Assembly: GCA_030280995.1 (NCBI GenBank)
Contig: JASXTE010000013.1
Coordinates: forward strand, 15,830,001 to 15,894,000
DNA from: Hemileia vastatrix
Taxonomy: Eukaryota; Basidiomycota; Pucciniomycetes; Pucciniales; Zaghouaniaceae
DNA: 64,000 nucleotides
Direction: 5' to 3'
In this document: piece after piece, positions 18,959 through 62,656 of the stretch
Position numbering within the stretch: position 1 is the first letter of the stretch
Layout: each line of letters begins with the position of its first letter
The notes under the pieces: generated by a model
Told to the model about the DNA's origin: nothing
Database searches by the model: none
Seen by the model: the letters and a program-made list of their open reading frames with translations, nothing else
Position numbers and translations under genes: made by a program

Positions 18959-18989
<31 letters not shown>

Positions 18990-36255: not shown

Positions 36256-36280
36256 GGGGGTATCAAAGTTGACCAATCTG
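36256..36280 (+). repeat. Left terminal inverted repeat of element B
   Basis: GGGGGTATCAAAGTTGACCA and five further bases. It pairs with 62632-62656 with three mismatches in 25. Confidence 0.8.
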
Positions 36281-36678
36281 CGATTAGGGATCAATAATTT
36301 TTTTCTCAGGATAAGACATTATTAATTGCAGAAGATTCTTATCCACAAGCCCCAGGGCTAGTGGATAAGGAATCCACAATAATGCATTATCCCGCCTCTT
36401 ATACACCTTTTTCCATTCCTAATTAGTGATCCCAAGCTCATCACATCCATGATGGATTTTTAAGAAAGTCAAATGACTTATAATTGCTGATTCCATCCTT
36501 AAGTATTTCCTTACTCTATGCTACTTAATTTTGGTGGCAAACACTTAAAGTTTTTTTCTATCTACACACCCCAACTGCACATTTGGCAGTGAATTCCCAC
36601 TTCCCTCATCACATAAACATTCCAACAACAAAAATGAAGCACCTCTCTACTAGAAAGCTACTTCACTCTTCACTCCAC

Positions 36679-36775
36679 TATGAATTCTATCACTTTACTT
36701 TTAGTTCTCCACTATAAACCTGACTCTGGTTTGGAAGATGCTTTAGAATATATGTCTTTTCTTTCCAAAAAGCAT
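36679..36775 (+). pseudogene. Transposase of element B, segment 1 (N-terminus)
   Basis: It starts MNSITLLLVLHYKPDSG and continues LEDALEYMSFLSKK, comparable to SDLEEDFVFLSKR in the A2 copy. Element 2 then interrupts the codon. Counting one copy of its 4-bp target site (GCAT at 36772-36775, GCGT at 56147-56150), the frame continues without loss into segment 2. Confidence 0.7.
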
Positions 36776-37870
36776 TGTAGACAAACCTATAGTACTAGCT
36801 ATAGGCATTGACCAAGGGAGTGGGAGAAAACCCAGAGGGAAAATCCCCTGTCCCTTTAGAAAAATAAAGTGAGGTTTACCTGCTACATTAAATTGGTTAC
36901 TGTTGCTAAACCCCCTTTTCAAACACATGTGACTGCCTGATCAGCCAAGAAAGTATTCTCCAGACAGACTACAAAACCAAAGAACTGAAATGTAGACCAA
37001 TATCCACACCAGAGAAACAATGATATTTGATGTTGGTTGCAAATACACACCAGAGACAGCAATAATACTTGATATAGCTTGCAAGACTATACCAGAGAAA
37101 CCAATTGCCAAGTTAAGTTAAATGAAGAACTCACCTTGAAACAAACACAGCCAATTGTGGCCAAAAAACAGTGAAAACTTAGTGAGGAACAAGGATATCA
37201 CCTCCAGATGGTTGTATGATAATTAAGGTTGCCACAAACTGTCTTATTAACTATATACACACAGACCACTATCTAAGAGCCCATGCACACCCACAAATTT
37301 GGCATTCTTGAGAGCCAAATTGCATAAACCTCTCTAGAAATACTTCCCAGCCTTCTAGCACCAAGGCCGGTGGTCTGCCCAACATCGGGAGGCCCACCTG
37401 AGGCAGCCTGACCACCCTGAAGCTAGAAAACCACCAAAAACCTCCAAAAATACCCATAATACTTAGAAAAATCTACTACAACAACTAAAACCTTAAAAAC
37501 CCATAATTAGGCTATAAAAACATTGTGACATAAAATGTAGAGAAAAATTAGCTCATTCTAATGGTACTAAGCACTTAACCTTAAGACTAAAGATTAGCCC
37601 ATAAAACACAAAAACAAAATTAAACAGCTATCTTTTTAAATAAAAAATGAGAAAATGAACCCTTGAAACTTGGAATATAAAAATTTCAACTGGACATAAA
37701 ATATAGAGAAAACCTGGGGCTATCCAATAGTAGTAGCCACATCCCTGAAGTCTCAATATTTGCTGAACAATTCCAGAAAAACACCCAAATATTAAATAAT
37801 GTCATTTAAGACATATCAAAACAATGCCAAATAGACCAACAAAAGGCTCCACCAATGTTGGAATACCACA
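36776..37870 (-). repeat. 3' LTR of element 2
   Basis: 1,095 bp. On the plus strand it runs from TGTAGACAAACC to GGAATACCACA, directly followed by the polypurine-tract complement TCCTCCCTCC. Confidence 0.88.
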
Positions 37871-37888
37871 TCCTCCCTCCAATAGAGA

Positions 37889-38287
37889 GTGTCCACATTC
37901 TCCTTCATCACAACTACAATGTTAAGCCTTCTTTCAAAATCTGCTACTGACATGGGTCCTTGCCAATACTGCATTGACAACAATCTCATCTGTACCATAA
38001 CACCAACAGCTCATCCCTACAGAACCTCCTGTGATGCCTGTAACTCTAGGAAGAAGAGTTGTTTTAGACCTGTTCAATTGTCCTCTTCAACATCTTCTCC
38101 TCCTCCACAACTTGATCCATCTTCTACCAGCACCAAAAGATCCAGACCATCCATCCTTATCCCCAGACTGGTCAACAAATTAAACCCTTTGAAAAAGAGT
38201 GCCAACCCCACTACCACCACTAGCTCTACCATCCTTGGTCCTTCTGATAGTAAGCCCAATAATTCTTCTTCCTGTAATTCAATCTAA
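37889..38287 (+). pseudogene. Antisense frame with a Zn2Cys6-like cysteine pattern
   Basis: The frame runs opposite to element 2 and begins at the LTR edge (an ATG gives MGPCQYC). Spacing is C-x2-C-x6-C-x12-C-x2-C-x6-C (CQYCIDNNLIC ... CDACNSRKKSC), which fits the fungal Zn(II)2Cys6 binuclear cluster rule C-x2-C-x6-C-x5-12-C-x2-C-x6-8-C. The basic residues are in the second half, not the first as is usual. A Ser/Pro/Thr-rich tail (TSTKRSRPSILIPRL, LNPLKK) follows. The reading frame is open, but whether it is a complete gene, an exon or a relic is not clear. A regulatory or nucleic-acid-binding role is inference. The degenerate partner in element 0 is at 1324-1740. Confidence 0.5.
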
Positions 38288-38639
38288 CGAATTTCCAGTT
38301 CATTTCCATCCAGACAGTGATGATGACAATTTGGGAGCCATTGAATAACACCCACCTAATCCATTGCCCACCATCAAGGACAAATTCCAAAAAAATTCTT
38401 TTCAAAAGAAGCATCTCATTCTAAATTACTTCAATCCACTCCTGCAAGGAATCCACAGGACCTTGAGAAAAGGAATAACCTCCCTCACCAGTTAAAAGCC
38501 AATGCTGAACATTTTGTTACATCTCTTGATTCTCTTCTGCCTCTTGACTCTTGATTAATCTCTTGACTTAGAAATAAATAAAAATTCTTGACCTCTACAG
38601 ACTTCCTGAATGAAGCCAATCATAAAAATCAAGTGCCTC

Positions 38640-39350
38640 AGTTTTCAGTCTTGGGGGACTAATCCTTTGCTTTAAGTCTTGGGGGTCTAACAGCCCTTAT
38701 TTTAAAGTCTTGGGGGACTCAAAAACCCTCAGTTTATAGTCTTGGGGAACTCAAGACCTAAATCAAAAAGACAGAACCAGATATCAAAACATTAAAGACC
38801 AAAGAGACAAACTAAAATTCTTGGGTGAATGTTCTACAGAGCTTCCAGCTCATCAGTTACCCCCACAGTTGCCTTAACAAAATTCAGAGACTCTCCCTTG
38901 AATGCCCTCTTCCAGAATCACCGTAACTCCCATTATCAGTTTATAGTCCTGAAGGACTCAACCATTAAACAATCATCAGTTTATATTCTTGGGGGACTAT
39001 ACCAATTTTCAGTTTAAAGTCTTGATGGACTGACCACAGTGTTCAGTTCAAAGTCTTGATGGACTATTCCAGTACTCAGTTTAAAGTCTTGATGGACTAA
39101 CAGATCCACAGTAGTAACAAAAAATAAAAATCTTGAAGAAATCTTAAAAAAAACCAGCCAGTTTTAAGTCTTGGAGGACTACCAGCATTCAGTTTAAAGT
39201 CTTGAGGGACTACAGAACCCATAGAGGATTCAAATTCTTGGAATAAAATTGTAATAAGCCAGTTTAAAGTCTTGGAGGACTAAAACCTGTGTTTAGTTTA
39301 AAGTCTTTATGGATTAACCCAGTGTTCAGTTTAAAGTCTTGACGGACTAA
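38640..39350 (-). repeat. Array of about 14 stem-loop/TAAACTG units, element 2
   Basis: On the plus strand the complement CAGTTTAAAGTCTTGGAGGACT recurs near 38640, 38677, 38702, 38731, 38938, 38977, 39010, 39047, 39078, 39160, 39190, 39257, 39295 and 39326. The order and variants match element 0 in mirror image, including the long-stem unit at 38938 (AGTCC-TTCA-GGACT). A broken copy of the 10-bp-stem hairpin lies at about 38831-38872. Confidence 0.85.
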
Positions 39351-39499
39351 CCACATTTTGCATATAAGGGCGGAGCCAGCTCCATGCACAATGCTCTGCA
39401 GCTAACCTGTTTAACTTCCACTCTTTCTTCATCATCTACACATCACTGATAAAATTTTCTTTCATCTCTTTTATTTTCTCTGTTGTTCCTTCAAAGATC

Positions 39500-40641
39500 A
39501 TGGCTGAATCTCCAGACTTTGAACCATCAGAGCTTCCTTGCTTCTCTGCTCCAAAAGACTATACTTGTAAACAGTGCATCCACATGTGCAGGCCTTGGAC
39601 TTTCACTCTTCCTACTCCTTAGGCCAAATTCTTTAACAGAGCCTGTGATTCCTGCAACTCTAAAAATAAAAGATGTGACAGAGACCCCAACTATCCAATA
39701 CCTTTACCTTCACCTTAACATAGATAAATTTCCAGATCTCCTACAAGGTCACCAGAACTTAGACCTGCTTCTTTACTTCAAGAAGAACTAACTTCACTTG
39801 TCCTCTGACCAACAATAATTCCTCTGATAGTTCCATTTCTTCCAGATCATCATCCAGAAGATCACAATCAGCTTTCAGGTCACCTTCTCCTGGTCCTTCT
39901 TTTAACAAACCTGGTACTCCACCACTAGTGTCCAACCCAACTGGGCCAAGCAATAATATCAACAACAACAGCAGCAGCCCTGCTACTCCAACCAGGCTAC
40001 AGGAACTCCCTCTTTATAGTCCATCTTCCCAACACCATTTAGAGAATGATCATGAGAATCCATACCTCCATCTGGTTGATCCTCCTACAACATCTATTCA
40101 GAGTTCTTAAACTGCTCAAATCCCGGCCACTTACAAATTTGATGAGCTCCCAATCTTTAAGTACCAAATTAAAAAATCCAATTTCTTTAACAGAGAACGA
40201 TTACTGATCCTATTCTTCTGTTAAGTTAGAACCCCGCCTCCTGAAACTGAAATTGGGATTGGCCAACCTATAAAATCTACCTTAAAACTAGATTCCGATG
40301 ACTTGAAACAACACCTAAGCATGATTTATTCTAACATGCTTAAGGCCTTTGCTCTCCATGGTCCATTGAATGAGTTTGAAAAGAATCTGAGGAAAGAGCT
40401 CCTTGATGACCACTGGAAAATGTTTAGAATAATCAAGCACACCTTCGAACACTCTATCCCTGCTTTTTCCACTTCTTCCAAAAAATTACCTTCCACTATG
40501 TTCCCTGACCATTACAATCCATATACTCTTTCCATCCGCCTACACCACAAAGAACACAGATCTTCTTCCAATCCTAACAAAAAGCAAAAATGCCACCATA
40601 ATCCGGACCAACCGCTGAAGACTTCTTCTTTGAGACATTAA
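39500..40641 (+). pseudogene. Second antisense cysteine-rich region of element 2
   Basis: Opposite to element 2, a frame starts MAESPDFEPSELPCFSAPKD and continues CKQC-x3-C, PWTFTLPTP, a stop, then NRACDSCNSKNKRCDRDP, again a C-x2-C-x6-C block with basic residues. Later parts are Ser/Pro-rich and in shifted frames. The last part (40303-40641, MKQHLSMIYSNML to QPLKTSSLRH) is one open stretch with charged helices (FEKNLRKELLDDHWKMFRIIKHTF). Position and sense suggest it and 37889-38287 are parts of one antisense gene or two paralogous exons on either side of the repeat array. Stops show decay. I cannot name a family. Confidence 0.4.
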
Positions 40642-40714
40642 AATAAAAACAAAAGAAATTAATAATTCACTAAATAGAGAGAAAAATAATAATTAACAGA
40701 TATATATATAAATT

Positions 40715-40982
40715 TGTTTATTTTTATTTTATTTTATTTTTATTTTTATTTTTATTTTTATTTTTATTTTTATTTTTATTTTTATTTTTATTTTTATTTT
40801 TATTTTTGTTTTTATTTTTATTTTTATTTTTATTTTTATTTTTATTTTTATTTTTATTTTTATTTTTATTTTTATTTTTATTTTTATTTTTATTTTTATT
40901 TTTATTTTTATTTTTATTTTTATTTTTAGTTTTATTTTTATTTTTATTTTTATTTTTATTTTTATTTTTATTTTTATTTTTA

Positions 40983-41013
<31 letters not shown>

Positions 41014-41610
41014 TTTATTTTTATTTTTATTTTTATTTTTATTTTTATTTTTATTTTTATTTTTATTTTTATTTTTATTTTTATTTTTATTTTTATTTTT
41101 ATTTTTATTTTTATTTTTATTTTTATTTTTATTTTTATTTTTATTTTTATTTTTATTTTTATTTTTATTTTTATTTTTATTTTTATTTTTATTTTTATTT
41201 TTATTTTTATTTTTATTTTTATTTTTATTTTTATTTTTATTTTTATTTTTATTTTTATTTTTATTTTTATTTTTATTTTTATTTTTATTTTTATTTTTAT
41301 TTTTATTTTTATTTTTATTTTTATTTTTATTTTTATTTTTATTTTTATTTTTATTTTTATTTTTATTTTTATTTTTATTTTTATTTTTATTTTTATTTTT
41401 ATTTTTATTTTTATTTTTATTTTTATTTTTATTTTTATTTTTATTTTTATTTTTATTTTTATTTTTATTTTTATTTTTATTTTTATTTTTATTTTTATTT
41501 TTATTTTTATTTTTATTTTTATTTTTATTTTTATTTTTATTTTTATTTTTATTTTTATTTTTATTTTTATTTTTATTTTTATTTTTATTCTTATTTTTTT
41601 TATTTTATTT
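40715..41610 (-). repeat. A-rich microsatellite, element 2
   Basis: About 890 bp of TTTTTA hexamers on the plus strand, that is AAAAAT in element sense. The long Phe-Tyr and Phe-Leu frames across it are artefacts. It lies between pol and the antisense region, as in element 1. Confidence 0.9.
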
Positions 41611-42367
41611 AAACTACTAACATACTAAAAAAACTTGAAAATAATTAAACAAAATTACCCAAAAAATATGAGATCTGAAAAATTAAAATGAAATGAATAA
41701 TAATAATAAATTGAGATAAATAATAATTACAAATGGTATCCCCCAGCAAATTGATGAGCTGATCTCCTGATACCTTACCCACATCCAAGTGCACCTTGAT
41801 GTGGATACATATTTAAATAATTTTTAAATTAATTGAGATAAAATTAACTAAGAAAAATAATATAAATAAAGAAAATCTAAAATAAATAGAAATTAAAGTA
41901 AATAATAAAAAATTAGATAGATATCAAAAAGAAAATAGCATTGCCTGGCCAATTGATGAGCCTTTCCCAACCAATGCTTACCCACATCCAGGTGACCCTG
42001 ATGTGGTGACACCATATAATATAATTTTGTGATTTTCCCTCTTTATATCCTAATAACCCCCATTAAAAAAATTAAAAGAAAAAAATCTAAAACTACCTTC
42101 TAACACAACCATAGACACAAAAATTATAGAAAAGAAAAAGACAAAGTCTGGCTCCATAGAAAGTCCAGTTGAAGGTAATGATCACTGGGTGGCCTCCCTC
42201 CAATAAGTAAAAATGATTGGAGACCACCAGTGATCCACCACCAAAACCAAAGAAGCCAGTCTATAACCAGTAAGCCAGTTTAAAGTAACAGTGGACTTAA
42301 AACCTAAATAACAAAACCCAAAACTATGATTCAACTAGGACAAAAAAATAAATGAAACAGACATTAT

Positions 42368-42409
42368 GGGGTAACTGTTCTACAGAGCCACCAGCTCATC
42401 AGTTACCCT
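42368..42409 (-). other. Conserved hairpin, element 2 copy 1
   Basis: GGGGTAACTG (42368-42377) faces CAGTTACCCT (42400-42409); the outermost pair is G-T. The 22-nt loop matches the complement of the loop at 743-764. It is followed by ACACTTGCC, as in the other copies. Confidence 0.7.
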
Positions 42410-42626
42410 CACACTTGCCAAAAGAAAATCTAGAAGCCCTTCCTGGGTACCTTCTAAAAAAAGAACAACATCCACACCATAAACCAAAACCAATAAGCAT
42501 AAAGAGTCTGGCACTTGAAGACCAAAAGAATTTTAAGTGTAAATTCATTGAGGACTAAAACCTGTGAAGAGAAACTGATATTAGGGTTCAACCAAATCAA
42601 GTGAAGGGGTTGGAAACAGAAAATCT

Positions 42627-42667
42627 GGGGTAACTGTTGATAGAGAAGCTAGCCCATCAGTTACCCC
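42627..42667 (-). other. Conserved hairpin, element 2 copy 2
   Basis: GGGGTAACTG (42627-42636) pairs perfectly with CAGTTACCCC (42658-42667), with a loop of the same type. The context CACACTTGCCAAAATAAAAT repeats that of copy 1, so copies 1 and 2 are a tandem duplication of about 260 bp. Confidence 0.75.
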
Positions 42668-45600
42668 CACACTTGCCAAAATAAAATCTAGAAGCCCCAC
42701 TTATGGTTACCTTCTAACAAAAAAAGTTTCACACAGACAGATGCACAGCATCACCAAAATTCAAAATTAAAGAATGGTCCTTTTTTTATCCTCATTGCGG
42801 AGTCAATCATATTTACTTCTAGCTCATCTAGGACAAAATCCCTTCACCTGATCCGCAGCCACCTATTTCTTTAAGACTGAAACATCCAAATCTTCCAAAA
42901 AATTAGAGCCTCCAGAAGCCTGAGATCTGGCTCTATAAGGCCTATTCCATCTGTCAGCAAACATTTTTCCCACTTACTCTCCAAACTTCTATTATACAGA
43001 AAAACCAAAAAACCAGGTTTCAAGAAATTCCTGAGTCTAGGAGGCAAATTCTTGTCACAGTATCTTACTGATTGATTTCTTATCTTCATCATTCTAGAGT
43101 ATTCCTTCTCTTGACATTCCTCTCTACATTCCAACTGTTGCATCCTGGCACGGAGCATATCTTCAGTCAAGCACACATCATCCCAATCAATTTCAAGATA
43201 AGAGACTACCTCCAAATCTACTGGTAGAACAACTTTCTGCCAAAACATTAATTTATAAGGGGAATAGCCAGTTCTCCTTTTCACAGTGACCCTATCAGAA
43301 AATAAAACCAAGGGTAAATAATGCCTCTATTTTTCAGCACTATCCCCACACATCTTCACCAAAGAGTTCTTTATAACTAGATGGCCTATTTCAACCATGC
43401 CTTCAGCTTCAGGATAATAAGGTGTAGACACTCTGACTTTAAAGCCAATACTTGACACAGCTTATTTAAATCCAGCTCCAAACTCTGGCCTACCTTCAAC
43501 AGTCACCAACTTTATCAACCCATATCTAAACACCCATTCTTTCTTCAAAAATTACACCACATTTTTGGAAGTCAAATTAACCAGAGGCACCACCTCAACT
43601 CAGCCAGACAAATCATCCCGGAAAAAATCAAGTATTTATACCAGCCCTCTTTAATATGGACAGAAACAATACTGACTCTTCCAAACGCAGATGATTCACC
43701 AGTAGCACGGCCAACCTCTTTAGGTTTCAAGTGACTTCTTCTTTGACATTCTTCACAAGATTGAACCCAACTCTGTAAATCCAACTTTATACCTGGCCAC
43801 CAAAATCTATCTGCTAATCTCCTATACGTCTCCTTTAAGCCTCTATGAGCAAGATCTTCATGCAAAGACTTCAACACCAACTCTTGACCCTTCTTCTGAG
43901 TCACCATCACTTGAGGATTTGGTTGTATCCTCCTCACCAACCTCCTTCCTGAAACATAGAAGCCAGGACTTTTCTTCCTTATTTCCCCCCAAGTATCATC
44001 ATCACAAATATCTGGCCTCTCCAAGGTTAACAAATATTGAACCATAATAAAAAAAACCCCAGTCTGAACCCAGGTCTCATATTCAATATCCAACAAAACA
44101 AAATCCAAGGTTACAACACTGTCATCAAAATCTCCAGTGTACAGATGAGCAATGCTACCAGCCCATCCAGGAAAAGAATCCCTAAACTTTGGTATATCCT
44201 TTTCCTTCCACTTAATTTTAAGAGAATCCAGTTCACCAATTAAAACACCATTTTCCAATTTTGAGCCATCCAAAAAAACAGCCTCATCTTCATCAAAAAA
44301 AACATCCTGATCACCAGAATCAAGATCAGAACCAGCCAGTTTGACCTCTTGGTGGAGGAGTGAAAAATTATCCAGCTTAGCCTCTTGGGGGAGGAAAGAG
44401 CAATCATCCATTTAATCCTCTTGGGGGAGGAGGGAAAAATTTTCAGCACCCTTTATGCTGGCCCTGACCACTGGAACATCTTCATCAAATTCTTTTGAGC
44501 TTGAATCTTCATCCGTGGGTGGTCTACTTGATAATCCATCTGGCATTATAAAAGTTTTACCTGGCTTGGGTACCTGGTCAAAAGAGAAATTTTGAATAAA
44601 TGTTACCCACCTAGTCATTGGACCATTTGGAAGACTAAGTGTGTTGATCATTTGAACCATAAAATTAGCATCCACCGGCAGCTCAAAATGCTGCCCCCAC
44701 TAAACAGTTTGTATCTTCTTCAAAATTTTCGCTACACCACACAATTCCAACTTTGGCTGGAAATACCTAGATTCCACCTCATTAAAAACCAAAGACTCAT
44801 ACATTACTGGCCTGACCTTCCCAGCTTTATCTTCCTGAGACAAAAAAGCACTAGCAGAAATATAACTTGAGTCCACCTCCGGATAAATTTTTTCAGCTTC
44901 CCTTCTATAATCCAACTTGTGAAGAATAATATCTTCATCCACCACCTTTTTAAACTTCTGAAAAGCAGCTTCACACTCTTCTGTCCATTCCCACTCTTCT
45001 TCTTTCCTGGTAAGCTTCTTTAAAGGTGAAGCCAACAAAGAAAAATTTTTAACAAAAATTCTGAAGTACACAAAAACCCCCAAAAATCCCCTGACTTCAG
45101 TAGTATTTTTAGGCCTTGGCCATGAATGAATTTTATTAACTTTCTTCTTCACCATAATCCTTCCCTCCTTATATACAACATGACCCAGAATTTCCAGAGA
45201 CGGAAAACAATAACAAAACTTTGACCCAGAAATTGTCAAACCAGCCTCTTCAATCCTAAACAATACTCTCTCTAGAGTAATTGCATATTCCCAAATAAAT
45301 CTCCTTATACCAGGGTTCTCCTTCAGCACCTGATTTCTATAATCAGTGGAGGGTCCTTTAATTCCTCAGTCATTGATAAAAATACCAGCATGAGTCAGAA
45401 CCTCATCCTGTAAAATCCAAGCCATTTGCACTTGATATACTTCTACCAAATTAGTTTCTCCTTGAGGCAACCTAGTGAGCTGAAATTATCTTAGTAGAGT
45501 CTCAAATGTTGTAAGTGACTGTGAATCCGTGTGAAGTTCCCTTTCATCATAACCACCCTTAATATCACCCAAACCATAACACACCCTTCCAGCAAAGGCT

Positions 45601-46594
45601 TCCACAAAGTCTTCTGCACTTGGTGGCATCCCTGTATCCTTGATAGTGACTTTATTCATGGCTCCAAGATCATGCACCACCCTCAATATCCCACTCTTCT
45701 TCTTAACACAGAAAACCAGACTTCAGTAACTAGAAGTTGATTGTTCATTCAATCCTTTCCTGACTCTTTCCCCAAAAATCTCCACAAAATCATCCCTGAT
45801 AGCAGCCAAAATTGGAATAGGTTTGATTTGCCAAGGTTCATGACAAACCACAGGAATCAAGTAAGGTTCCCCATAAGAGTGTTTCAGCACACCCCTTTCC
45901 TCTTCAACAAATGCAAACGCTTTCTCCCTGAGCACAATAATGTGCAACAACAACTTCTATTCCTCATTAGACAACCACTCATCTGGACCAAAATTAATAA
46001 CTTTAAACCTTTCCACAGTCACCTGAGAAGTTTCCACAAAATCAGGAGGATTCTTCACCAGCGAAGTACAGTACGGATCTCTTGACAACAGAGGTCTCTT
46101 CAAAGTAGGATTCAAACCTACAGGCATAGGCTCATTGACAGGCCTAATCTTCTGCGCTACCTTCTTATACTTTAAAGCTCCACCTTCAACTTGAGGGATC
46201 TCCAGGATGTCTTCACCACCAGACCTGGAAGAAAAACCAAGGGCTTCCCCATTTCTCACATGTGTGGCCAAAGTAATGTTTTTGAAAGGTGTAGAAGAAA
46301 CCCTAGCAGTGCACAATTGGGGGGACTTTATTTTATTCCCCAATCTCACCACTCCACAACTTTTCTGCAATTCCACATCTTTATCCCCACTTCCATCTTC
46401 CAAATCTTCAAATCTTGATTCATATTCTGAATCACATCTTCTAGAATTGTGCAGTTTATCCTTATGCCGGAGACTCAAAAATTGATTTTAATGATCTTCT
46501 TTCTTCAAAATCTTATGCAGTTTAACCTCATTCTGGAGGCCCAAAAATTGATCTTTATGATCTTCTTTATTCAAAAATTTCTGCAGTTTAATGG

Positions 46595-47003
46595 AAAAAA
46601 GTTTTGCTCGTATCATCACAAATCACGATGAGGGAAGATGTCTCATACACCATAGCGGAGCGGATGCCTTTCTTAGGCAGGATGATAAGATGGTGCCCAT
46701 ACACCAAATTTAGAGAGGAAAATGCCATTTTTTTTGGCTGAGGCAAGAACAGCGCCCATACACTGTTTTGAGAGTAGAATTGAGAATATGGCGCCCATAC
46801 ACCATGAGGAGGAGGGAAATTTCAGTATCGTTGCAATGAACGGGGTTCTACAAAGGGTTCTCCATGAGCGAGACGGCCCATAACCTGTAGAGAATGATGC
46901 CTTGCAGAACCAGGGAAAGGTCTCCGATGTATTCAGAGGCTACACTATATACTGATGAGAGACTAGCTAAGTACATAGTATGGTAACACCATAACAGCTG
47001 GAG
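46595..47003. mobile_element. Unidentified ~410-bp insert in pol of element 2
   Basis: It is less AT-rich than its surroundings and absent from element 1. It begins TGGAAAAAAGTTTTGC and ends CACCATAACA (TG...CA). It carries four CCATACACC-type motifs (46650, 46697, 46756, 46794), three with GCGCCC or TGCCC in front. It splits a copy of the stem-loop unit (AGTTTAA before, CTGGAGGCCC after). No target duplication found. It could be a short non-autonomous LTR-type element; the ends are approximate. Confidence 0.4.
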
Positions 47004-49920: not shown

Positions 49921-49941
49921 CCAAAGAACTGGCAGGATCTA

Positions 49942-49959
49942 CCCCCATATTGGGCGCCA
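49942..49959 (-). promoter_or_regulatory. tRNA primer-binding site of element 2
   Basis: In element sense TGGCGCCCAATATGGGGG, 4 nt from the 5' LTR. It is nearly identical to that of element 1. Confidence 0.8.
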
Positions 49960-49963
49960 GAAA

Positions 49964-50594: not shown

Positions 50595-50617
50595 GATTAA
50601 AAGTCTGAAGTCTCTGT

Positions 50618-51413: not shown

Positions 51414-54400
51414 GAAAAGGGATAGGAAGAATCTTAAGTGCAAACTAGGTCATGTCGGTCATAATGATGAGAATTGTATTACACAATTACCAGAAGAGTT
51501 AAAAAAATTTGAATTCTCATCACATTCAAAGAATGAAAAAGCTAAACCTTCTGAAGAGATCACTGAGTCAGCATCTTTAGTTGTCGATCATGAGCATGAA
51601 GAATCTGCCTATCTTGCCGGAATGAATAACTTCAACACCTGTTTTTTTCTTGATTCAGGTGCAACCTCTCATATGGTGAAGGAGAAAAGGATTCTCTCAA
51701 ATGTTAAACCACTTGTGTCTCCAGATAAAATCGATACTGCAGGAACTGAAGTTTTAACGGTCAAATATTCTGGAGACCTAGTCATCAATCAACAGCTTAC
51801 CTTACAAAATGTTTTAGTTGTAAATGGTATTTCCGCAAACTTGATTTCAGTCAACAAGTTAAATCATTTGGGTTATAGCATTGTGTTTAATCCAACCGAG
51901 ACTAAGGTTCTGGACAAAAATGGTCAAATTATTGCTAAACTAAATCATAGAGGACAGAAGCAGAACTTGTGGTATGTCAACAATCAGGCTCTCTTATCTT
52001 GTGCAAGGGGTCTGACTCTATATCAATGGCATCAACATTTAGGGCATCTTAATGTAAAATCAACCAGAAAGTTCCTCTCAGATAAGGGTCTGAATTTTGT
52101 TGATGAAGATTATGTCTGTGTTACATGTTTAAAAGGGAAAATGGTTAAACTGCCCTTTTTGTCAACATTTCCGATAGCCACTATTCCTTTGTTCCGTGTT
52201 CATTCAGATGTTATAGGGCCTATCGATCCACCATCTATTAGTGGTTATAAGTACATTGTAAAATTTGTAGATGATTGTTCACGATATTCATCAGTTTATC
52301 TTATGAAATGCAAGTCTGAAGTTTTTTTCCAAATTTCTTATATATCAGGCAGATGTTGAAAACAAACTGGAATGTAAGATTAAATACTTGAAGTGTGATA
52401 GGAGAGGAGAGTATGGTTCTGGTAAATTCATTGATCATTTAAATAAATGTGGAATTACTTGTGAGCAAGCACCAGCAAGGACACCACAACATAACTCAGT
52501 AGCTGAACGGTTTAACAAAACACTCATAGACAAAGTGTGCACTGTAATGGTTGACTCTGAATGTCCGGCTAAACTCTGGGGAGAGTGTGTTATGAGCTGT
52601 GTTTTTCTGTTAAATCTACTCCCACACTCTAAACTTAAATTCAAAACACCTCAAGAAGTCCTTAATAGTTTTCTTCCTTGTGAGGGAAATTATTTAACGT
52701 ACTATTTGTTCCTTAAAAGGTTTGGTTCACTCACCATACGTCATAATGCAAAAGAGGATTGAACGTTTAAAATTCAACCACGAGGATCTGAATGTGCAAT
52801 TGTTGGTTATGAGCCTAATTCTAAAAGTTACCGTCTCTTTGAAAAATCAACATGAAAAATTATTATCTCCCGCAATGTTAAAATCATTGAATCAGAAAAT
52901 TATTTTAATGAAAACTGTCTCTCTTTCAAAGTGCCTGACTATGTTCATTTACCTCTTACCGCTACTAGAATCACGTTGTCTTTGACTCTACCTGAAGAAC
53001 CCTTACAGACATCCCTCTTACCCATAACATCTTCTGGTGTTCCAACTCGTACCACTGTCCCTGGTGATGTTTTGGAGGCATCAGATGATGAAGTGGTGAA
53101 AAAGGGACAACGACTGAGACTTACCTATAAACGTCAAACTCCCGAGCCGCCTTTGAATGAGGCTTCTCTCATACCTGAATCGGGTAATTCTGAAGAGGAT
53201 GAAACATCAACAACAGAAGATATCTCATATCATGGAAGACCTATCAGACAACGAAAACCACCTACTTACTATGGTTATCTTGCTACCTATTCACCAGATA
53301 GTCCAACATATAAACAAGCTCTAAATAGCCCTGATGCAGAATTGTGGCAGGAAGCTATGGATATAGAATATGAATATTTATGTGAACATCAAGTAGGTGA
53401 GCTTGTTAATAAAACAAAGGATATGAAAGTTATCGGGGGTACTTGGGTTTTGACAAAAAAGAAAGATGGATTGGGAAGAGTAATCAGATTCAAAGCACGA
53501 TGGGTAGCTTTGGGGAATCTTCAGAAGGAGGGTGTTGACTACGGTGAAACTTATGCCTCTGTTGGTCGTACTGAAACATTCAGGCTCCTAATGTCTCTCG
53601 TGGCTGCCCGAAATTGGTCTATCTCTCAGTTTGACATATCAACTGCATTTCTTCATGGTATTATGAGGGATAATGTTTATGTAACTCAAGTGAAAGGATA
53701 TGAGATAGGGGGTAAGCACAAGGTTTGGAAATTAAGAAAATCACTCTATGGCACTCGACAGGCGCCCCGTCAGTGAAAAGAGAAGTTTGTTGAAGTCATG
53801 AAACAATTAAACTTCACTGAAGCTGAAGGAGATGAGTCTCTGTTTATTTTTCAAACTTGTGAAGCGTTTCTTTTTGTTCATCTTCATGTAGATGATGGTC
53901 TTGTATTTTCCAATTGTGAAAAAACTGTAAAAAGATTTCATTCTGATTTGCGGGCGCGTTTCAAGGTTAAATGGGTTGAAAATCCCACTTATCATCTTGG
54001 AATCAAGATTTTATATTTGGATGATTGTATTACTTAACCACAAACAGCGTATGTTGATGAGTTAGCAAAAAGATTTGGTTTGAACACTTGTACAAAGCTA
54101 TCCACACCACTTCCTGTCGGATGTCAACTTCTTGATCCCTCACCTGAAGAAACTGAAGCAGGCAAAGACAATCCTTATCAAGAACTCATTGGCTCGCTAA
54201 GTTACCTGGCTGTTTCAACTAGACCGGATATAATTCAAGCTCTCAATTCTCTTTCTAATTACAATGCTAATCATTCTCCCTATCACTGGAAGTTGGCTTT
54301 AAAACTTTTACAGTATGTAGTTACTAATCAAGAAATTGGGATCAGATATCAGCGAAATACGGTTGATGTTGTCTTTAGATCATACAGTGATGCAGACTAC

Positions 54401-54898
54401 GCTAATTTCAAGGTTACCAGATGCTCAATAACTGGTTATGTAATCTTACTCAATGGTAGTCCTATATCGTGGCGTAGTAGGAGACAGAAAGTGGTTACGC
54501 TCTCAGTCACTGAAGCTGAATACATTTCAATGTGTGAATGTGCAAAAATGCTTGTCTGGATCACAAAGCATTTCTTCTCTCTTAACATTGATATGGTTAC
54601 ACCCCAGATCCTCAGCCGCATCAATGAACCTGATCTTTTTTGTGACAATAATGGCGCCATATTTTTGTCTAAAGAGGCTCAAATCAATGAACGCTCAAAG
54701 CATATTGATGTTTGCTATCACTGTTTACGTCAAAAAGTTAAACTCAATGAGATACGAATAGTTTATTTTTCCACTGTGGATATGCTAGCCGATATGTTCA
54801 CTAAACAACAACCTCAAATTTGCTATGATAATGACAAAAAACGCTTGAATCTAATCATGCCTGAAGCAGGGGGGGTATTGAAGGAGACGGGTAGTTAG
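51414..54898 (+). pseudogene. pol: Copia protease-integrase-RT-RNase H
   Basis: Protease: FFLDSGATSHMV. Integrase: pre-integrase WHQHLGHLN...CVTCLKGK zinc motif, then FRVHSDVIGPI, LKCDRRGEYGS and QHNSVAERFNKT with the D, D, E residues. A +1 shift in a T run near 52325 changes frame. RT (RVT_2): GTWVLTKKKDGLGRV, FKARWVALG, FDISTAFLHG, LYGTRQAPRQ, active site HVDDGL (53890). RNase H: GSLSYLAVSTRPDI, YSDADYANFKVTRCSITGY, TEAEYISMCECAKMLVW, FCDNNGAIFLS, RSKHIDV. Stops at 52760, 52853, 53774 and 54035 disable it. The last codons overlap the polypurine tract and LTR start. Confidence 0.88.
54868..54875 (+). promoter_or_regulatory. Polypurine tract of copia element
   Basis: A G-rich run (AGGGGGGG) ends directly at the 3' LTR start TATTGAAGG. 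Confidence 0.75.
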
Positions 54899-55318
54899 GA
54901 TGACATGTTCCATGGTATTCTATACGTGCTTAACACATTGATTAGTTTATATGGTTTATTGATTTAAGGTGTGATTAATCAATCAGTGTTTATGTTGATA
55001 ATATAAGATTATATATAGTAGATGATACCTTTCTTGTATCCTTATCCAATCTTATACTTTTCCATTACCAAAAGCTGATTGATTGCTTTGCGTTATTTTC
55101 TCTTTGTTCTTTTATTTATTATTGATATTTGTTACTATCCCGTGTTGCGCATCAATCACTGGGGACAGGTGATTGAATACGTTTACTTCAACGGGGTATT
55201 TATTATTTGACTAACAAATAGCTTATATTAAATAAAAGGTGATTAAATACGTTTACTTCAATGGGGTATTTATTATTTGACTAACAAATAGCTTATATTA
55301 AATAAAAGACTTTTGATA
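54876..55318 (+). repeat. 3' LTR of copia element with 70-bp tandem duplication
   Basis: The stretch GTGATTGAATACGTTTACTT...AAATAAAAG (70 bp) occurs twice in tandem with two differences, and once in the 5' LTR. This explains the 443 against 373 bp exactly. Confidence 0.9.
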
Positions 55319-55323
55319 GATGT

Positions 55324-56146
55324 AGGTTGCAAATCCACACCAGAGACAGCAATAATACTTGATATAGCTTGCAAGACTATACCAGAGAAACCAGTTGCCA
55401 AGTTAAGTTAAATGAAGAACTCACCTTGCAACAAACACAGCCAATTGTGGCCAAAAAACAGTGAAAACTGAGTGATGAGCAATGATATCACCTCCAGATG
55501 GTTGTATGATAATTAAGGTTTCCTTAAACTATCTTCTTCACTATGTACACACAGACCACTATCTAAAAGGCCATGCAAATTAATGAATTTGGCATTCTTG
55601 AGAGCCAAATTGCATAAAACCCCTCTAGAAATGCTTCCCAGCCTTCTAGCACCAAGGCGGGTGGTCTGCCCGCCTGAGGTGGCCTGACCACCCTGAAGCC
55701 AGAAAACCTCCAAAACCTCCAAAAATACCCAAAATACTTAGAAAAGTCTACTACAACTACTAAAACCTTCAAAATACATAATTAGGCTATATCAACATTG
55801 TGACATAAAATGTAGAGAAAAATTAGCTCATTCTAATGGTACTAAGCACTTAACCCTAAGACTTAAGGTTAGCCCATCAAGCACAAAAAACAAAATTAAA
55901 CAGCTATCTTTTTAAATAAAAAATGAGAAAATGACCCCTTAAAACTTAGAATATAAAAAATGTCAAAAGACATAAAATATAGAGAAAACTTGGGGCTATT
56001 CAATGGTAGTACCCACATCCCGACAGTCCCAATATTCACTGAATAATTCCAGAAAAACACCCAATTATTAAATAATGCCATTTAAGACATATCAAAACAA
56101 CACCAAATAGACTAAAAAAGGGCTCCGCCAATGTTGGGAAACCACA
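55324..56146 (-). repeat. 5' LTR of element 2, part 2
   Basis: It continues from the copia insertion (AGGTTGCAAATCCACACCAG) to GGGAAACCACA, then GCGT, the second target-site copy. Total LTR without copia is 1,081 bp. Confidence 0.85.
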
Positions 56147-56439
56147 GCGTTACACAAACCCAAGGGGGCCAAATCTTCATCATGATCCCAGATATGATCT
56201 CTGCTCCATTCTCAACATTCTTCAACTAAACTTCACTCAACTATTTCGAACTTCTCCTGAATCTTTCTTAAAACTTTATCAACTCATCCCCAAACATCCT
56301 ATAATTCATAACATTTCTTAAAATAAACATCGTGATCCTGCTATTCAACTTGCTGTTGCACTATGTTGCTTTGGCTCAAATGGAAATAGTGCTTCTGTAA
56401 GACATTTGGAAATTCTCTTTACCATAGGATATAGGACGG
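56147..56439 (+). pseudogene. Transposase of element B, segment 2
   Basis: It resumes at RYTNPRGPNLHHDPRYD and runs through QLFRTSPESFLKLYQLIPKHPI, a stop near 56320, then IQLAVALCCFGSNGNSASVRHL and ILFTIGYRT. The last part aligns with FDLGYGSVNTYTKQC of the A2 copy and marks the helical region before the catalytic core. A solo LTR interrupts it after ACGG (56436-56439). Confidence 0.75.
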
Positions 56440-57532
56440 TGTAGACAATCCTATAGTACTAGCTATAGGCCTTGACCAAGGGAGTTGGAGAAAAACCAGA
56501 GAGAAAATCCCCTGTCCCTTTAGAAAAATAGAGTGAGATTTACTTGCTAAAGTAAGTTGGTTCCTGTTTTGCTAAAGCTCCTGTTTAAAACACTTGACTG
56601 CTTGATGAGCCAAGAAAGTAGTCCCCAGATAGACTACCAGACCAAAGAACTGAAATGTAGAACAACGTCCACACCAGAGACAGCAAAGATACTTGATGTA
56701 GGCTGCAAATCCACACCAGAGACAGCAATAAAACTTGCTATAGCTTGCAAGACTATAACAGAGAAAACAGTTGCCAAAGTTAAGTTAAATGAAGAACTTA
56801 CTTGCAACAAACACAGCCAATTGTGGCCAGAAAACATTGAAAAGTGAGTGAGGAACAATGATATCACCTCCGGATGGTTGTATGATGATTAAGGTTGCCC
56901 CAAACTGTCTTATTCACTATGTACACACAGACCACTATCTATGAGCCCATGCGCACCCACCAATCTGGCGCCTGTACCCGCCAAATTGCATAAAAAACCC
57001 TCCTGAAGCACTCCCCAACCTCCTAAAACAGAGGCGGGCAGGCCTTCCGACGTCGGAGATGCCGCCTGAAGCGGCCCAGCCTCCCTGAAGCCAGAAAACC
57101 AATAAAAACCACTAATCTACTTAGAAAAATTAGCTACAACTACTAAAACCTTTAAAACACGGAATTTGACTATAACAACATTGAGACATAAAATATAGAG
57201 AAAAATTAGCTCTATCCAATGGTACTAAGCACTTAACCTTAAGACTTAAGTTTAGCCCGTAAAACACAAAAAACAAAATTAAACAGCAATCTTTTATAAA
57301 TGAAAAATGAGGAAATGACCCTTTAAAACTCAGAATATGAAAAATGTCTTCAAGACATAAAATATAGAGAAAAACCAGGGCTATCCAAAGATAGTACCCA
57401 CATACCCGCAGACCCAATATCCACTGAATAAAACCAGAAAAATACCCAATTCTTTAACAGATGTCAATTAAGACATGCACAAACCACGCCAAATCACACA
57501 ACAAAGGCCCCTGCCAATGTTGGAAGACCACA
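56440..57532 (-). repeat. Solo LTR of the element 2 family
   Basis: TGTAGACAATCC to GGAAGACCACA, 1,093 bp, flanked by perfect ACGG duplications (56436-56439, 57533-57536). No internal sequence remains, as after LTR-LTR recombination. Its middle (about 56950-57085) keeps many CpG sites (TTCCGACGTCGGAG, GAAGCGGCCC) where the LTRs of element 2 have TG or CA. Confidence 0.88.
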
Positions 57533-57536
57533 ACGG

Positions 57537-58300
57537 TGATATTATACACCAAGCACTGTATGATTGCCATCCTTTCCCTTAAGTCTCAAACACTTACTTG
57601 GCCAACTCCACAACTGCAACTTGAATCCTCTCAAGTAATGCAAGCTGAAGGTTTCCCTGAATTTGTATGATTTGTTGATGGTACAACTATACCTTTGAGT
57701 CAAAAGCCTGCTTATGATGGCAACCATTATTTTGATTGCAAAAAAATGTTTTTTTGAAATGTTCTCCAATTTCACATCTTTAATAAACTTACTTTTTACC
57801 TTCTTTCTAGATACTCTATTACTGTTCAACTTGTATGTGATGTCAATAAAAAATTTATTGCTTTTCATAGTGGCTGCCCTGGCTCATGTCATGACTCTTC
57901 CGTCTTCAAAAGAATGAGGATTTCTCAAACTTCTGACTCATACTTTGACAAGTCTCAGTACCTCCTTGAAGACTCAGCATATGCAAGTTGAAAGTACATT
58001 ATACCTGCTTTCTGTGGTACAACTATAGAAAATGACCCCAAAACCATCTTTAATTATCACCTTGCCCAATCAAGAGTACCAATTGAACATGCTATTGGGA
58101 TTTTAAAGGGAAGATTTTCTAGTCTCTGGGAGCTCAGAATCCAATTTCAAAAAAAAATTGGAGATCAAAACTGCAAATCATTGTATCATGACTTGCATTA
58201 TACTCCACAATATTCTAGCTGATCTAAAGGATGAGTGGAATGATCTTTATGAAGAAGAGGAACCTGAACCAGCACCGGCTCTCTTCTCCCTTGAATCACA
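57537..58300 (+). pseudogene. Transposase of element B, segment 3 (catalytic core)
   Basis: Counting one ACGG, the frame continues from segment 2 (ILYTKHCMIAILSLKSQTLTWP, SSQVMQAEGFPE). FVDGTTIPLSQKP gives the first catalytic Asp. A probable intron lies around 57750-57810, ending TTTCTAG. Then SITVQLVCDVNKKFIAFHSGCPGSCHDS is followed by LLEDSAYA (second Asp), FNYHLAQSRVPIEHAIGILKGRFSSL (Glu) and, after a frameshift near 58155, KTANHCIMTCIILHNIL. This is the DDE_Tnp_4/Harbinger pattern. Stops at about 57670 and 57990 and the frameshift inactivate it. In its family it cuts and joins transposon ends in the nucleus. Confidence 0.85.
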
Positions 58301-58339
58301 AAACATTCTTTCAACTGGCATATGTTCTGTCATTATGCC

Positions 58340-59535: not shown

Positions 59536-60700
59536 AAGAATAATGAAGCAAGAAAAAAAAGACTAATCTCTGCTTTTTAATTTTTTTTAAAGAATTTTTT
59601 TTCTTTCCCTTATTTCTGGAAATTTCCACCTGCTTCCAAAATAAATCAAGTTATTTGTTTTTTTATTTGTGTTAGTTTTTGCGAATAACTAATTATTCTG
59701 AAATTTACTGAATTCAATTTTTTTTTTAAATTCATTTTAATAAATTTGATTGAATGACATCATGTTGTATTTCCATTAGCAGGTAAGTAATTTTTATTTA
59801 TATATTTTTTATTTATTTTTTTTGAAATTAAATTTACTGAATTTATTTTAATTTTTTTTTTACCCTTTTTTTTTGGTGAATTTGTTTGTTGTTTCAAGAA
59901 CTTTATCTGGTATTTCAAAAACCATTCAGGATTTATTTTGATTTTTATTTTTCTGCAATTTATTTAACTTTTTTTTTTATTATTTTTTGTTTATTTTTTT
60001 TTTTGGAATTTTTTTTTCTAGGATATTACCTGGTATTTCAATCATAATTCAGGTTTTTATTTTGAATTTTTATTTTTTTCAAAAGTTTTACTGTTTTTTT
60101 TGCAATTTTTTTTTTTACTAAAATTTTTTTTTCTTTTCAATTATTTTACTGATAATTTTTTATTTTTAGGTTTTTTATTAATTTATTTTATTTTTTATTT
60201 TTTTTTGTTATATAAATTTTTGTGTCCAGGACATTACTATGGAAAATTGAACTGGCTCATCTTCATTATCATCAATTTCTTCAGAATCATCTTTATCCTC
60301 TCTTTCTTCCTTGTCTACAAATCTTTAAAGCTCCAAGAATAACCATCAAATATATTCAACTTATTATTCTTTATCTTTAATTTTTTTATCTCTTCAATGT
60401 CCTTCAATTCCATTCCTTCTCCCAATCAATCTGAGCTTTCCTTACCAGAAAATAAAACAGAAAATAATTGAACCTACTAATGAATCAAGCAATTCAAAGA
60501 AGAAATTTTATAAAAATAGAAAATTAATTAGGATGAATATATTTTGAAAAACATTCTGTGGACATTTGGACAATCTCAAATTTTATAAGACTTCAATATC
60601 AAATCTTAAGAAAAATTTTTTTTTACAAAAACATCAAAAACCTTACAGAAGGTGGTATAGATCTCATTGTTGCAGTTTTTAATAATGGATAAAAACCTCA
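59536..60700. other. T-rich, low-complexity stretch of element B
   Basis: Long T runs and a GGTATTTCAA motif repeated near 59910 and 60031 (followed by AATTCAGG-like sequence). No motif-bearing frame. It probably represents introns and spacer before the TET/JBP-like coding exons. Confidence 0.4.
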
Positions 60701-60704
60701 ATTA

Positions 60705-61471
60705 ATCTTAGAATTTCATTCATTTAACGGGAAAAAGGATGAAGTTTTTTCCCATATTTCTGATTTAATTTCTACTCTCTATCAAATGGCTTTGGTTTGA
60801 CAACCCTTATCAAAAAAAAATCTGATTTCTAGTGTCATGAAAGGTTTTAGTTAGTGACCATGGGATTATCAATGAGTTTCTCTTGGTATGTAAATATTTT
60901 TTTATTATAAGTAATTTTTAATTTTTTCATATATTTCAGGAATTTATTCTTTATTGAAAAATTTGAAACCAGAGCAAATGGAAGAAGATCTGAAACAATG
61001 AAATTCTTTAGGATCATTTAATATTTTCTTGGTAAATAGATTTAAAAAATTATGTATTCAAGATTTTCAAAAAAAAACCATCAACTTGCTTTGGAATCTG
61101 GTTTACAAAATTTTTCTGATCCTGAATGGGAAGATGAAATAAATGCTTATGTTTTTTGTTCTAATGTTAACATCACTTATATAGGATTCTACAATAATTT
61201 TCATCTAGATAAACATGATATTAATTGTCTAACAATTGGAATTTTCACTTATATTAATACAAAGACTTGTATTCCTACTTCATCACCCTCTTCTGATGAG
61301 GGACATGGCCTTTATTTTCCTGACCATAAATGTATTATTTATTTTGGTAGTGCCAATGGAATAGTTGAGGCTATATGGAATTCTTCTCAAAATCAGCATC
61401 AAACAACTAAAGCACATCCAACTTTAGTTTCTTGTCAAGAATTTACCCATTTGGCTGTTCATTCCAAATAA
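60705..61471 (+). pseudogene. TET/JBP-like 2OG-Fe(II) dioxygenase, B copy
   Basis: Exon 1 (about 60705-60885) reads EFHSFNGKKDEVFSHISDLISTLYQ. A 54-bp intron (60886-60939, GTATGT...TTTCAG) interrupts a Gly codon before IYSLLKNL; the acceptor position matches the A2 copy at 7134. After a stop and a shift in an A run (about 61065), 61070-61471 is open: LESGLQNFSDPEWEDE, GFYNNFHLDKHD with H-x-D, CLTIGIFTYI, LYFPDHKCIIYFG, GIVEAIWNSSQNQHQTTK with the likely third iron ligand His, and THLAVHSK. Here the FGCSFQI...R tail, with the Arg expected to hold 2-oxoglutarate, is missing. It lies between the transposase and the convergent SANT-like gene of the same element. Predicted role: oxidation of methylated bases in nuclear DNA. 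Confidence 0.72.
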
Positions 61472-61925
61472 ATGAAGGTTTTATTAATTGAATTAACAAT
61501 AAAAAAAAATAATAAGAAAAATTGTTCTTAGTAGATCTGTCAAGTATGGTAACTAAAATATTATAAAATTTTGTTCTCTCATTAAATATTTTATTCCAAT
61601 TTTTTTCATTTTTTTCTCTTTTATTAATTTTTTTATTTATTTTATTTTTTATCTTTTTTAATTTTTTTAAATTTTCCTTTTTGTTTTCCTTTTTTTCAAT
61701 TTTATTTTTAATTTTTAATTTTTTTCATTTAACTTTGGATTTGTCTCTTCCAATTTTTTTTTAAAGTTAAATCAAGATAGATTACTATTTTTATATAATG
61801 GTGCATCTGGCCTTAGGTTGTTCTTCTGGCTATTATATAAAATACAAAAAATTGATTGGGAATGGTGAAAATTATTGGTTGTAAAAATTTTCAATTTTTA
61901 ATTTTTTTTTCCATTTGATTTCTTT
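61472..61925. other. Spacer between convergent genes of element B
   Basis: T-rich sequence between the ends of the TET/JBP-like and SANT-like genes. No gene seen. A shared transcription-end region is likely. Confidence 0.35.
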
Positions 61926-61929
61926 AATA

Positions 61930-62318
61930 CTGATATCAAGTTCAGTAATACTAAAACCAGTAGAAGATGAAAGAATCTTTTCCTTCTTGTATTTGGCTCA
62001 ATAATTCTTGAAGTTTTCAGACATCTTTTTAGGTAAAAGATCTTTCTTTCCCTTGGTATTATTCAGTAATTTTTTGGCCATTAGAAGATAACCATTAACT
62101 TTTGATGCTTGGGGCCATCCTAATTTAGTTGAATTTTCGGTACCAAATAAAGAATTATAGTTATTTTTATTTTTCAGCCAGTTTATAAGATTGAGATGAT
62201 CATTTTTTTAATTGAACGGTCTTTGATTTCTCAGCTGAGTGGGGGAAAGAGGGAGTAGTGGGATTTGAAGACAACTGGGGGAAGGCTGCCTTTGAGAATA
62301 TCTATGATGACGTGGCAT
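61930..62318 (-). pseudogene. SANT/Myb-like protein of element B, short copy
   Basis: From MPRHHRYSQRQPSPSC the frame shifts in an A run (about 62205) into LNLINWLKNKNNYNSLFG, KLGWPQASKVNGYLLMAKKL, LLPKKMSENFKNY, a stop, then KYKKEKILSSSTGFSITELDI. It ends after this domain; the coiled-coil half seen in A and C is absent. It points inward from the right terminus, as its homologue does in A and C. Confidence 0.6.
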
Positions 62319-62631
62319 GTTAAGATAATTGAAGATGAAAAGGAGTAAAAACAAGTAGATGAGATGGAAAGGTGTTTTGAATGGAGAGAATAGAAAGGAG
62401 GAGATTAGAATGGGAGATTGCAGCAAGGTAGAAGGCATATCTAGATAGTAGTCAAAGATGTGGTTATGAATAAAAGTAGGCAAAGATAAGGTTATAAAAA
62501 ATTGAGTAGAAAAATGTCGTATAAGAGGTCAACTTTGACATGTGAAATTTCTAATAACCCAATTATTCAAAAAAAATAATTGCAGAAGATAATTGGGGTA
62601 TAAAGATTTTTATCCACAATGAATTTAATTG

Positions 62632-62656
62632 CAGATTCATCAACTTTTATACCCCC
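62632..62656 (-). repeat. Right terminal inverted repeat of element B
   Basis: CAGATTCATCAACTTTTATA followed by CCCCC. It pairs with 36256-36280 (three mismatches in 25) and is followed by TA. Confidence 0.8.

What the first reader, a model, noticed from the sequence alone, without database searches (positions are those of the whole stretch)
36256..62656. A Harbinger-type transposon that carries its own TET/JBP-like dioxygenase
Once the LTR insertions are removed, element B is about 5.9 kb with matching ends and TA flanks, and holds transposase, TET/JBP-like 2OG-Fe(II) dioxygenase and SANT-like genes. Fungal TET/JBP genes are known to expand together with KDZ-type transposons; pairing with a Harbinger (DDE_Tnp_4) transposase inside one defined element is, to my knowledge, not a standard description. 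An element that brings a 5-methylcytosine oxidase could undo methylation-based silencing of itself.
Basis: partly seen in the sequence, partly recalled or inferred. Interest (0 to 1): 0.9.

Follow-up and report, generated by a model that had tools for sequence, protein, structure and literature searches.

The report
Rust Harbinger transposon carrying TET-like dioxygenase
This is a decayed copy of an abundant jumping gene of a rust-like fungus that carries, besides its transposase, a relative of the enzymes that oxidise methylated DNA; this kind of element was published in December 2025, but here sister copies hold clearly different versions of that enzyme at the same place.

Summary
Largely confirmed: 36256-62656 is one Harbinger-type (DDE_Tnp_4) element with matching ends and TA flanks, interrupted by an LTR retrotransposon (itself holding a copia element) and a solo LTR. 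The H-x-D protein is a Tet-like 2OG-Fe(II) oxygenase (PF20515, 7.5e-22). Of 8 other copies of its right end, taken by rank and not by gene content, 7 have the dioxygenase facing the third gene within 10 kb; 4 hold both termini and all three genes in one order. Not confirmed: 'SANT-like'; a 305-aa third-gene frame has no Pfam match. The window copy is dead.

The novelty claim fails: Kojima (Biology 2025, PMC12730594) describes this kind ('PHISTA': TET+ Harbinger of rusts, TA duplications, third protein without Myb/SANT) and proposes the same anti-silencing role.

Added here: copies alike in termini, transposase and third gene (about 83-88% DNA identity) carry one of two dioxygenase modules (64-68% identical) at the same position. 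One is also found (80%) in another Harbinger family of the window. The dioxygenase was thus replaced as a block; direction unknown. Self-demethylation is untested; the window copy is strongly CpG-depleted.

The parts
36254..36290 (+). left terminus of element B (TA flank 36254-36255, TIR from 36256)
   Evidence: 29/33 match to right end, above the maximum of 200 shuffles
36256..36775 (+). element B, left piece, including the transposase 5' part
   Evidence: 83% to L061 703-1239; L061 transposase ORF starts in that stretch
36776..56146 (-). Gypsy-type LTR retrotransposon inserted in B (coding on -; its 3' LTR is split by a copia element, about 50222-55319)
   Evidence: LTR pairs; flanks GCAT/GCGT, one mismatch; RT_RNaseH and Integrase_H2C2 on -, RVT_2 and copia gag on +
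56147..56439 (+). element B, middle piece (transposase)
   Evidence: 46% aa identity to an A' transposase piece, E 5e-26, with an in-frame stop
56440..57532 (.). solo LTR inserted in the transposase gene of B, ACGG on both sides
57533..58222 (+). transposase 3' part, DDE_Tnp_4
   Evidence: PF13359 9.1e-09 and 2.9e-05 on two pieces
60240..61471 (+). Tet-like 2OG-Fe(II) dioxygenase gene of B, broken; HxD at 61202-61210. The 5' limit is set by likeness to an L061 ORF
   Evidence: PF20515 7.5e-22 on 61046-61471
61911..62390 (-). third gene of B, truncated, with stop and frame changes; no Pfam domain
   Evidence: 67% aa to 3438-3716; about 1.7 kb of this region in L061 is missing here
62480..62658 (-). 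right terminus of B (TIR up to 62656, TA flank 62657-62658)
   Evidence: 3016 first-look candidates in the genome; of the 40 scored, 39 besides itself at 88-91%
36017..36255 (+). left part of an outer related element into which B inserted
   Evidence: 83% to 2969-3206
62657..64000 (+). continuation of that outer element (third gene on +)
   Evidence: 78% to 3204-4029
5074..8808 (+). element A': second Harbinger-type element, other TIR family, TA flanks
   Evidence: 39-nt TIR, 97% complementary; flanks
5465..6061 (+). A' transposase pieces (lack the later catalytic part)
   Evidence: match B transposase pieces, E 5e-26 and 3e-21; no transposase match in Pfam on these pieces
6503..7159 (-). A' Tet-like dioxygenase, one in-frame stop
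   Evidence: PF20515 1.7e-17 and 3.1e-06 on two pieces

Best explanation
Element B is a dead copy of a large family of Harbinger-superfamily DNA transposons (PHISTA-like) in a rust-type fungus. Fuller family members code for a DDE transposase acting on GGGGGT...ACCCCC ends with TA flanks, a Tet-like dioxygenase transcribed in the same direction, and a third protein transcribed towards them from the other end. Shown: architecture, abundance, TA flanks, protein families, conserved gene order, and two alternative dioxygenase modules at one site, so that the dioxygenase was replaced as a block. Inferred: the dioxygenase oxidises 5-methylcytosine on transposon DNA so that CpG methylation silences and mutates the family less; because such an enzyme can act in trans, another working dioxygenase can take its place, which would explain why the module changes while transposase, termini and third gene stay.
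For: Termini and site. Protein families (L061 dioxygenase ORF PF20515 4.5e-31, transposase ORF DDE_Tnp_4 9.7e-13). Copies: of 8 right ends taken by rank (rows 2-9), 7 have the dioxygenase convergent to the third gene within 10 kb, 5 also a transposase upstream on the same strand, 4 also both termini; L061, chosen for a dioxygenase plus third-gene co-hit, has everything. TA on both sides of B, L061, L064, L066, L068 and L069. Two modules at one site. A CpG-directed mutation process: in two young LTR pairs transitions hit 11 of 80 CpG positions against 9 of 418 other G/C positions, Fisher p=4.8e-5. Published parallel: Kojima 2025.
Against: No enzyme activity, expression or methylation data. B is nearly free of CpG (o/e 0.10 over 57533-62656), so it was not visibly protected, though it is dead and its age is unknown. 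L067, one of the 8, has no dioxygenase or transposase in 10 kb; L062 and L065 have no transposase of their own there. Both structure models failed (pLDDT 45 and 34), and no solved TET structure was matched by sequence. Only these 8 copies plus L061 could be read over 10 kb, and they are the closest matches to B's right end, not a random sample.
Confidence: 0.8

Rival explanations
1. The dioxygenase is not a gene of the element but a stray neighbour or a separate TE nested between the two ends.
For: The region is full of nested insertions; L067 has the third-gene end without dioxygenase in 10 kb.
Against: Same order and orientation of all three genes in L061, L063, L064, L066, L068, L069 and B, on seven different contigs; dioxygenase plus third gene also in L062 and L065.
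Confidence: 0.04
2. The dioxygenase serves something other than erasing 5-methylcytosine, for example modifying another base or marking transposon DNA for the transposase.
For: I know of no assayed rust-type (PU) enzyme; Kojima leaves another DNA-modifying activity open.
Against: Pfam places it in a Tet-like superfamily; CpG-directed mutation shows a plausible substrate in this genome.
Confidence: 0.3
3. The two dioxygenase types did not arise by replacement; the middle of the element simply evolves faster.
For: The stretch at about 300-510 of the L064 junction query is variable and partly inverted among copies; a single origin of A-type copies is not rejected in the flanks (p-AU 0.26 and 0.27); A' and B families also share a 75-79% stretch outside the dioxygenase.
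Against: Identity of L064 to B-type copies is 78-92% in bins up to 2 kb, then no alignment apart from a 64-69% stretch in the enzyme domain, then 92-96% at 4.5 kb and 78-92% beyond; A-type L063 aligns throughout and L069 throughout except parts it lacks.
Confidence: 0.08

Closest known systems
PHISTA, TET+ Harbinger families of Pucciniales (Kojima 2025, PMC12730594; abstract, sections 3.1.4 and 3.4, part 1 of 2 of the Discussion, figure legends and search passages seen; supplement not read)
   Same: Harbinger-type DDE transposase, TET/JBP gene, third protein without Myb/SANT, TA target duplications; same proposed role
   Different: Species here unknown, and whether this family is among the 15 could not be tested. 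The paper reports transfers between superfamilies and PHISTA members in clusters P2 and P6; alternative modules in otherwise alike copies of one family in one genome are not in the parts I saw.
KDZ transposons with TET/JBP (Iyer et al. 2014, not held; known here only through Kojima)
   Same: DNA transposon with TET/JBP gene, lineage-specific expansion
   Different: Other transposase superfamily; the Dileera element Zisupton-1_PGr makes 8-bp duplications
Nuwa and canonical PIF/Harbinger elements (as described in Kojima)
   Same: Harbinger-type transposase plus an accessory protein
   Different: 3-bp duplications and, for Nuwa, a Myb/SANT protein; here TA flanks and no Pfam Myb/SANT match above cut-off

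Membership tests
PHISTA (TET+ Harbinger) | PHIS/Harbinger-type DDE transposase | tested here: met
   DDE_Tnp_4: B pieces; L061, 9.7e-13
PHISTA (TET+ Harbinger) | TA target site duplication | tested here: met
   TA on both sides of B and of five fetched copies. At B's own site ATT would also fit the unfilled relative at 3196-3215, and TA as part of the terminus cannot be excluded.
PHISTA (TET+ Harbinger) | TET/JBP dioxygenase gene between the termini | tested here: met
PHISTA (TET+ Harbinger) | third protein without Myb/SANT domain | tested here: met
   no Pfam family for the 305-aa ORF of L061; the fold model is too weak to exclude a divergent helical DNA-binding domain
PHISTA (TET+ Harbinger) | transposase falls in the PHISTA clade | not tested
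   the paper's sequences are in its supplement, which could not be read
PHISTA (TET+ Harbinger) | host in Pucciniales | not testable with these tools
   genome unnamed; 748 Mb, window GC 34%; rust-like by inference
Canonical Harbinger / Nuwa | 3-bp duplication; Myb/SANT second protein in Nuwa | tested here: not met
   no common 3-bp repeat in the flanks of the five fetched copies read as a group (by eye)
TET/JBP dioxygenases | 2OG-Fe(II) oxygenase family with HxD...H | tested here: met
   PF20515 above cut-off; HLD at 61202-61210 and a His in HQTTKA at 61397-61399 in B, HTD and HQMTKA in A'. That this second His is the iron ligand is my reading; the fold was not confirmed.
TET/JBP dioxygenases | oxidises 5-methylcytosine | not testable with these tools
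   no assay

The most novel reading that the evidence does not exclude
Within one Harbinger family of this fungus the dioxygenase is an interchangeable cassette: copies with alike termini, transposase and third gene carry one of two strongly diverged dioxygenase modules at the same site, one of them shared with another Harbinger family of the same genome, as if transposon families change anti-silencing enzymes while the rest of the element stays.
Probability: 0.6. Interest if true: 0.6.

Novelty: new member of a known kind. Interest (0 to 1): 0.42.

Why it matters
It confirms, at copy level in a very large genome, that Harbinger elements of a rust-type fungus carry TET-like enzymes, and it offers a natural experiment: otherwise alike transposons with different dioxygenases in one genome, whose methylation and CpG decay can be compared to ask whether the enzyme protects its own family.

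Tried and rejected
Protein search with the B dioxygenase piece and the third-protein piece: nothing below E 0.001. The transposase piece found one protein, 85% identical, labelled Xanthomonas hawaiiensis, probably a fungal contaminant contig (inference); a scan of genome contigs with it found no relative. Dioxygenase pieces in viral contigs and genome contigs: nothing. Structure models of the dioxygenase piece and the third-protein piece: too weak to use, so no fold search was run. PDB sequence searches: only weak matches to unrelated proteins or none. SANT-like third gene: not supported. 'Conserved spacing' holds for order and orientation; distances vary. My earlier idea that the A-type module was taken from the A' family is not established: A' also shares a 75-79% stretch outside the dioxygenase with both types, so the A-type may be ancestral and the B-type the newcomer. 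The B-type junction search that would mirror one search did not complete, nor was the search with the whole A' element.
Full report
What the finding is.

Anatomy. The two ends match over 29 of 33 bases (score 46; maximum of 200 shuffles 28) and both are flanked by TA. Sequence outside the element on the left (36017-36254) and on the right (from 62658) aligns without interruption to a second copy of an outer, related element at 2969-3206 and 3204-4029, so B entered that outer element as one unit. Inside B lie a Gypsy-type element (36776-56146) whose 3' LTR is split by a copia element, and a solo LTR (56440-57532) with ACGG on both sides. The three pieces left sum to 5937 bp. The outer element has its own third gene on + right of the insertion, which gives the large inverted repeat 61928-62393/62656-63124.

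Genes. Pieces were searched separately. DDE_Tnp_4 is found at 57758-58222 and the Tet-like family PF20515 at 61046-61471. B is dead: stops in transposase, dioxygenase and third-gene pieces and a frame change near 61070 in the dioxygenase, frame changes in the third gene (ORFs against L061), about 1.7 kb of the third-gene region of L061 missing, and the LTR inserts. A second element, A' (5074-8808), has 39-nt TIRs of another family, TA flanks, partial transposase and a PF20515 gene on the opposite strand with one stop.

Is it a unit elsewhere? The assembly has 747.6 Mb. First-look candidates, which are not confirmed matches: 10,849 for PF20515 (150 scored, all above cut-off), 8,172 for the B transposase piece (150 scored), 10,493 for the third-protein piece (150 scored), 3,016 for the 179-bp right end (40 scored, including the window's own). 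I fetched 10 kb inward from rows 2 to 9, in list order, that is by likeness to B's right end and not by gene content, and one further locus (L061) because a dioxygenase and a third-gene hit lay together. Result: dioxygenase convergent to the third gene in 7 of 8 (L062-L066, L068, L069; not L067); transposase upstream on the same strand in 5 of 8 (L063, L064, L066, L068, L069); both termini as well in 4 of 8 (L064, L066, L068, L069). In L063 another element abuts and the first 126 bases of the left end are missing; L062 and L065 show no transposase of their own in the 10 kb. L061 has both termini and all three genes, with open frames of 358 aa (transposase), 209 aa (dioxygenase domain) and 305 aa (third gene): PF20515 4.5e-31, DDE_Tnp_4 9.7e-13, no Pfam match for the third protein.

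Two dioxygenase modules. Compared with L064, the transposase half of L061, L063, L066, L068, L069 and the B pieces is 82.6-87.8% identical (L062 aligns over only 492 of 2000 bases, 80.7%; L065 and L067 show no match of 80 bases or more), and the third-gene half is 83.0-87.1% identical in the eight others that hold it (L061-L063, L065, L066, L068, L069 and B, B over 759 of 1673 bases) and 75.3% in L067. The dioxygenase is 86.6-91.4% identical in L062, L063 and L069 (A-type) but only 63.7-68.2% in L061, L066, L068 and B (B-type); L065 matches the B-type query at 89.5% over 367 bases. Along L064, identity to B-type copies is 78-92% in 250-base bins up to 2 kb, then there is no alignment apart from a 64-69% stretch in the enzyme domain, then 92-96% at 4.5 kb and 78-92% beyond; A-type L063 aligns throughout, L069 throughout except parts it lacks. 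The A-type gene is 79.9% identical to that of A'. Outside the dioxygenase A' is 68.7-70.8% identical to these copies over about 340 bases of transposase, but about 75-79% over a stretch just after the transposase, in A-type and B-type copies alike; so whether the A-type came from the A' family, or was there first and the B-type came in, is open. In a tree of the dioxygenase DNA, A-type copies group with A' with support 100 on a branch of 0.44. The transposase tree joins L066, L068 and B (all B-type) with support 100 but leaves L061 (B-type) apart and the A-type copies unresolved; the third-gene tree does not split by type; a single origin of the A-type copies is not rejected in either flank (p-AU 0.26, 0.27), so one replacement is enough. 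The left A-type junction is multi-copy: of 40 scored places, 31 of the 39 other than L064 itself have flank and module pieces on the same strand close together (my count; the query contains the A-type piece, so this says nothing on the ratio of types). The mirror search for B-type did not complete. Of the 30 best PF20515 places (ranked by Pfam score), 17 are B-type (84.6-90.9% to the L066 gene), 8 are A-type-like (75.9-80.9% to the L064 gene) and 5 are neither (at most 70.3% to either), so there are probably more than two modules in the genome.

Mechanism. In two young LTR pairs of the window, transitions fall on 11 of 80 CpG positions and 9 of 418 other G/C positions (p=4.8e-5): a CpG-directed, probably methylation-dependent, mutation process works here. 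CpG observed/expected ratios: B 0.13, 0.44 and 0.10 for its three pieces, A' 0.24, outer elements 0.04-0.32, the Gypsy in B 0.05 (LTR) and 0.13, 23400-29300 0.02, solo LTR 0.35, copia 0.53, the Gypsy at 9873-22349 0.53. A TET-like enzyme would have something to act on. That it protects its own family is inference; the main piece of B is as depleted as old elements without a known dioxygenase, but B is dead and age is not controlled.

Prior work. Kojima (PMC12730594; seen: outline with abstract, sections 3.1.4 and 3.4, part 1 of 2 of section 4, figure legends and search passages; [quoted passage not shown] Paper searches: (listings); it was the only paper holding Harbinger, dioxygenase and Tet-like. 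I ran no search aimed at exchange of dioxygenase modules inside one Harbinger family, so I do not claim that this is absent from print.

Verdict.

Noticed in passing
window 37886-38287 (+) and about 39500-39720 (+); also 1324-1779 (-): Gypsy-type elements whose pol is on the other strand carry ORFs with a CxxC...CxxC zinc-cluster-like motif (37886-38287: Zn_clus E=0.0059, below cut-off; the other two by eye).
   Followed up: partly
window 40674-41612 and 18895-19594: Long TTTTTA-type arrays of about 0.7-0.9 kb at matching places in two related Gypsy-type elements.
   Followed up: no
window 4923-5066 and 6032-6176: Short repeat, 90% identical, one copy just left of A' and one inside it where its transposase breaks off; related stretches occur in L061 7027-7559.
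   Followed up: no
P0001: A transposase fragment labelled Xanthomonas hawaiiensis is 85% identical to B's; most likely a fungal contaminant in a bacterial assembly.
   Followed up: partly
G000: More than 10,000 first-look candidates for PF20515 in one 748-Mb genome; by my hand count about 88 of the 150 scored show no stop inside the match.
   Followed up: partly
L002, L009, L012, L023, L024: Dioxygenase genes that fit neither module (at most about 70% to either); the one of L012 lies about 2.9 kb from a third-gene hit on the opposite strand, so a third module may exist in the same kind of element.
   Followed up: no
window 5074-8808: A' has its dioxygenase and the segment 8027-8343 in the opposite orientation to its transposase, unlike B, and extra partial TIR copies at its right end (8440-8470, 8681-8710; by eye).
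   Followed up: partly
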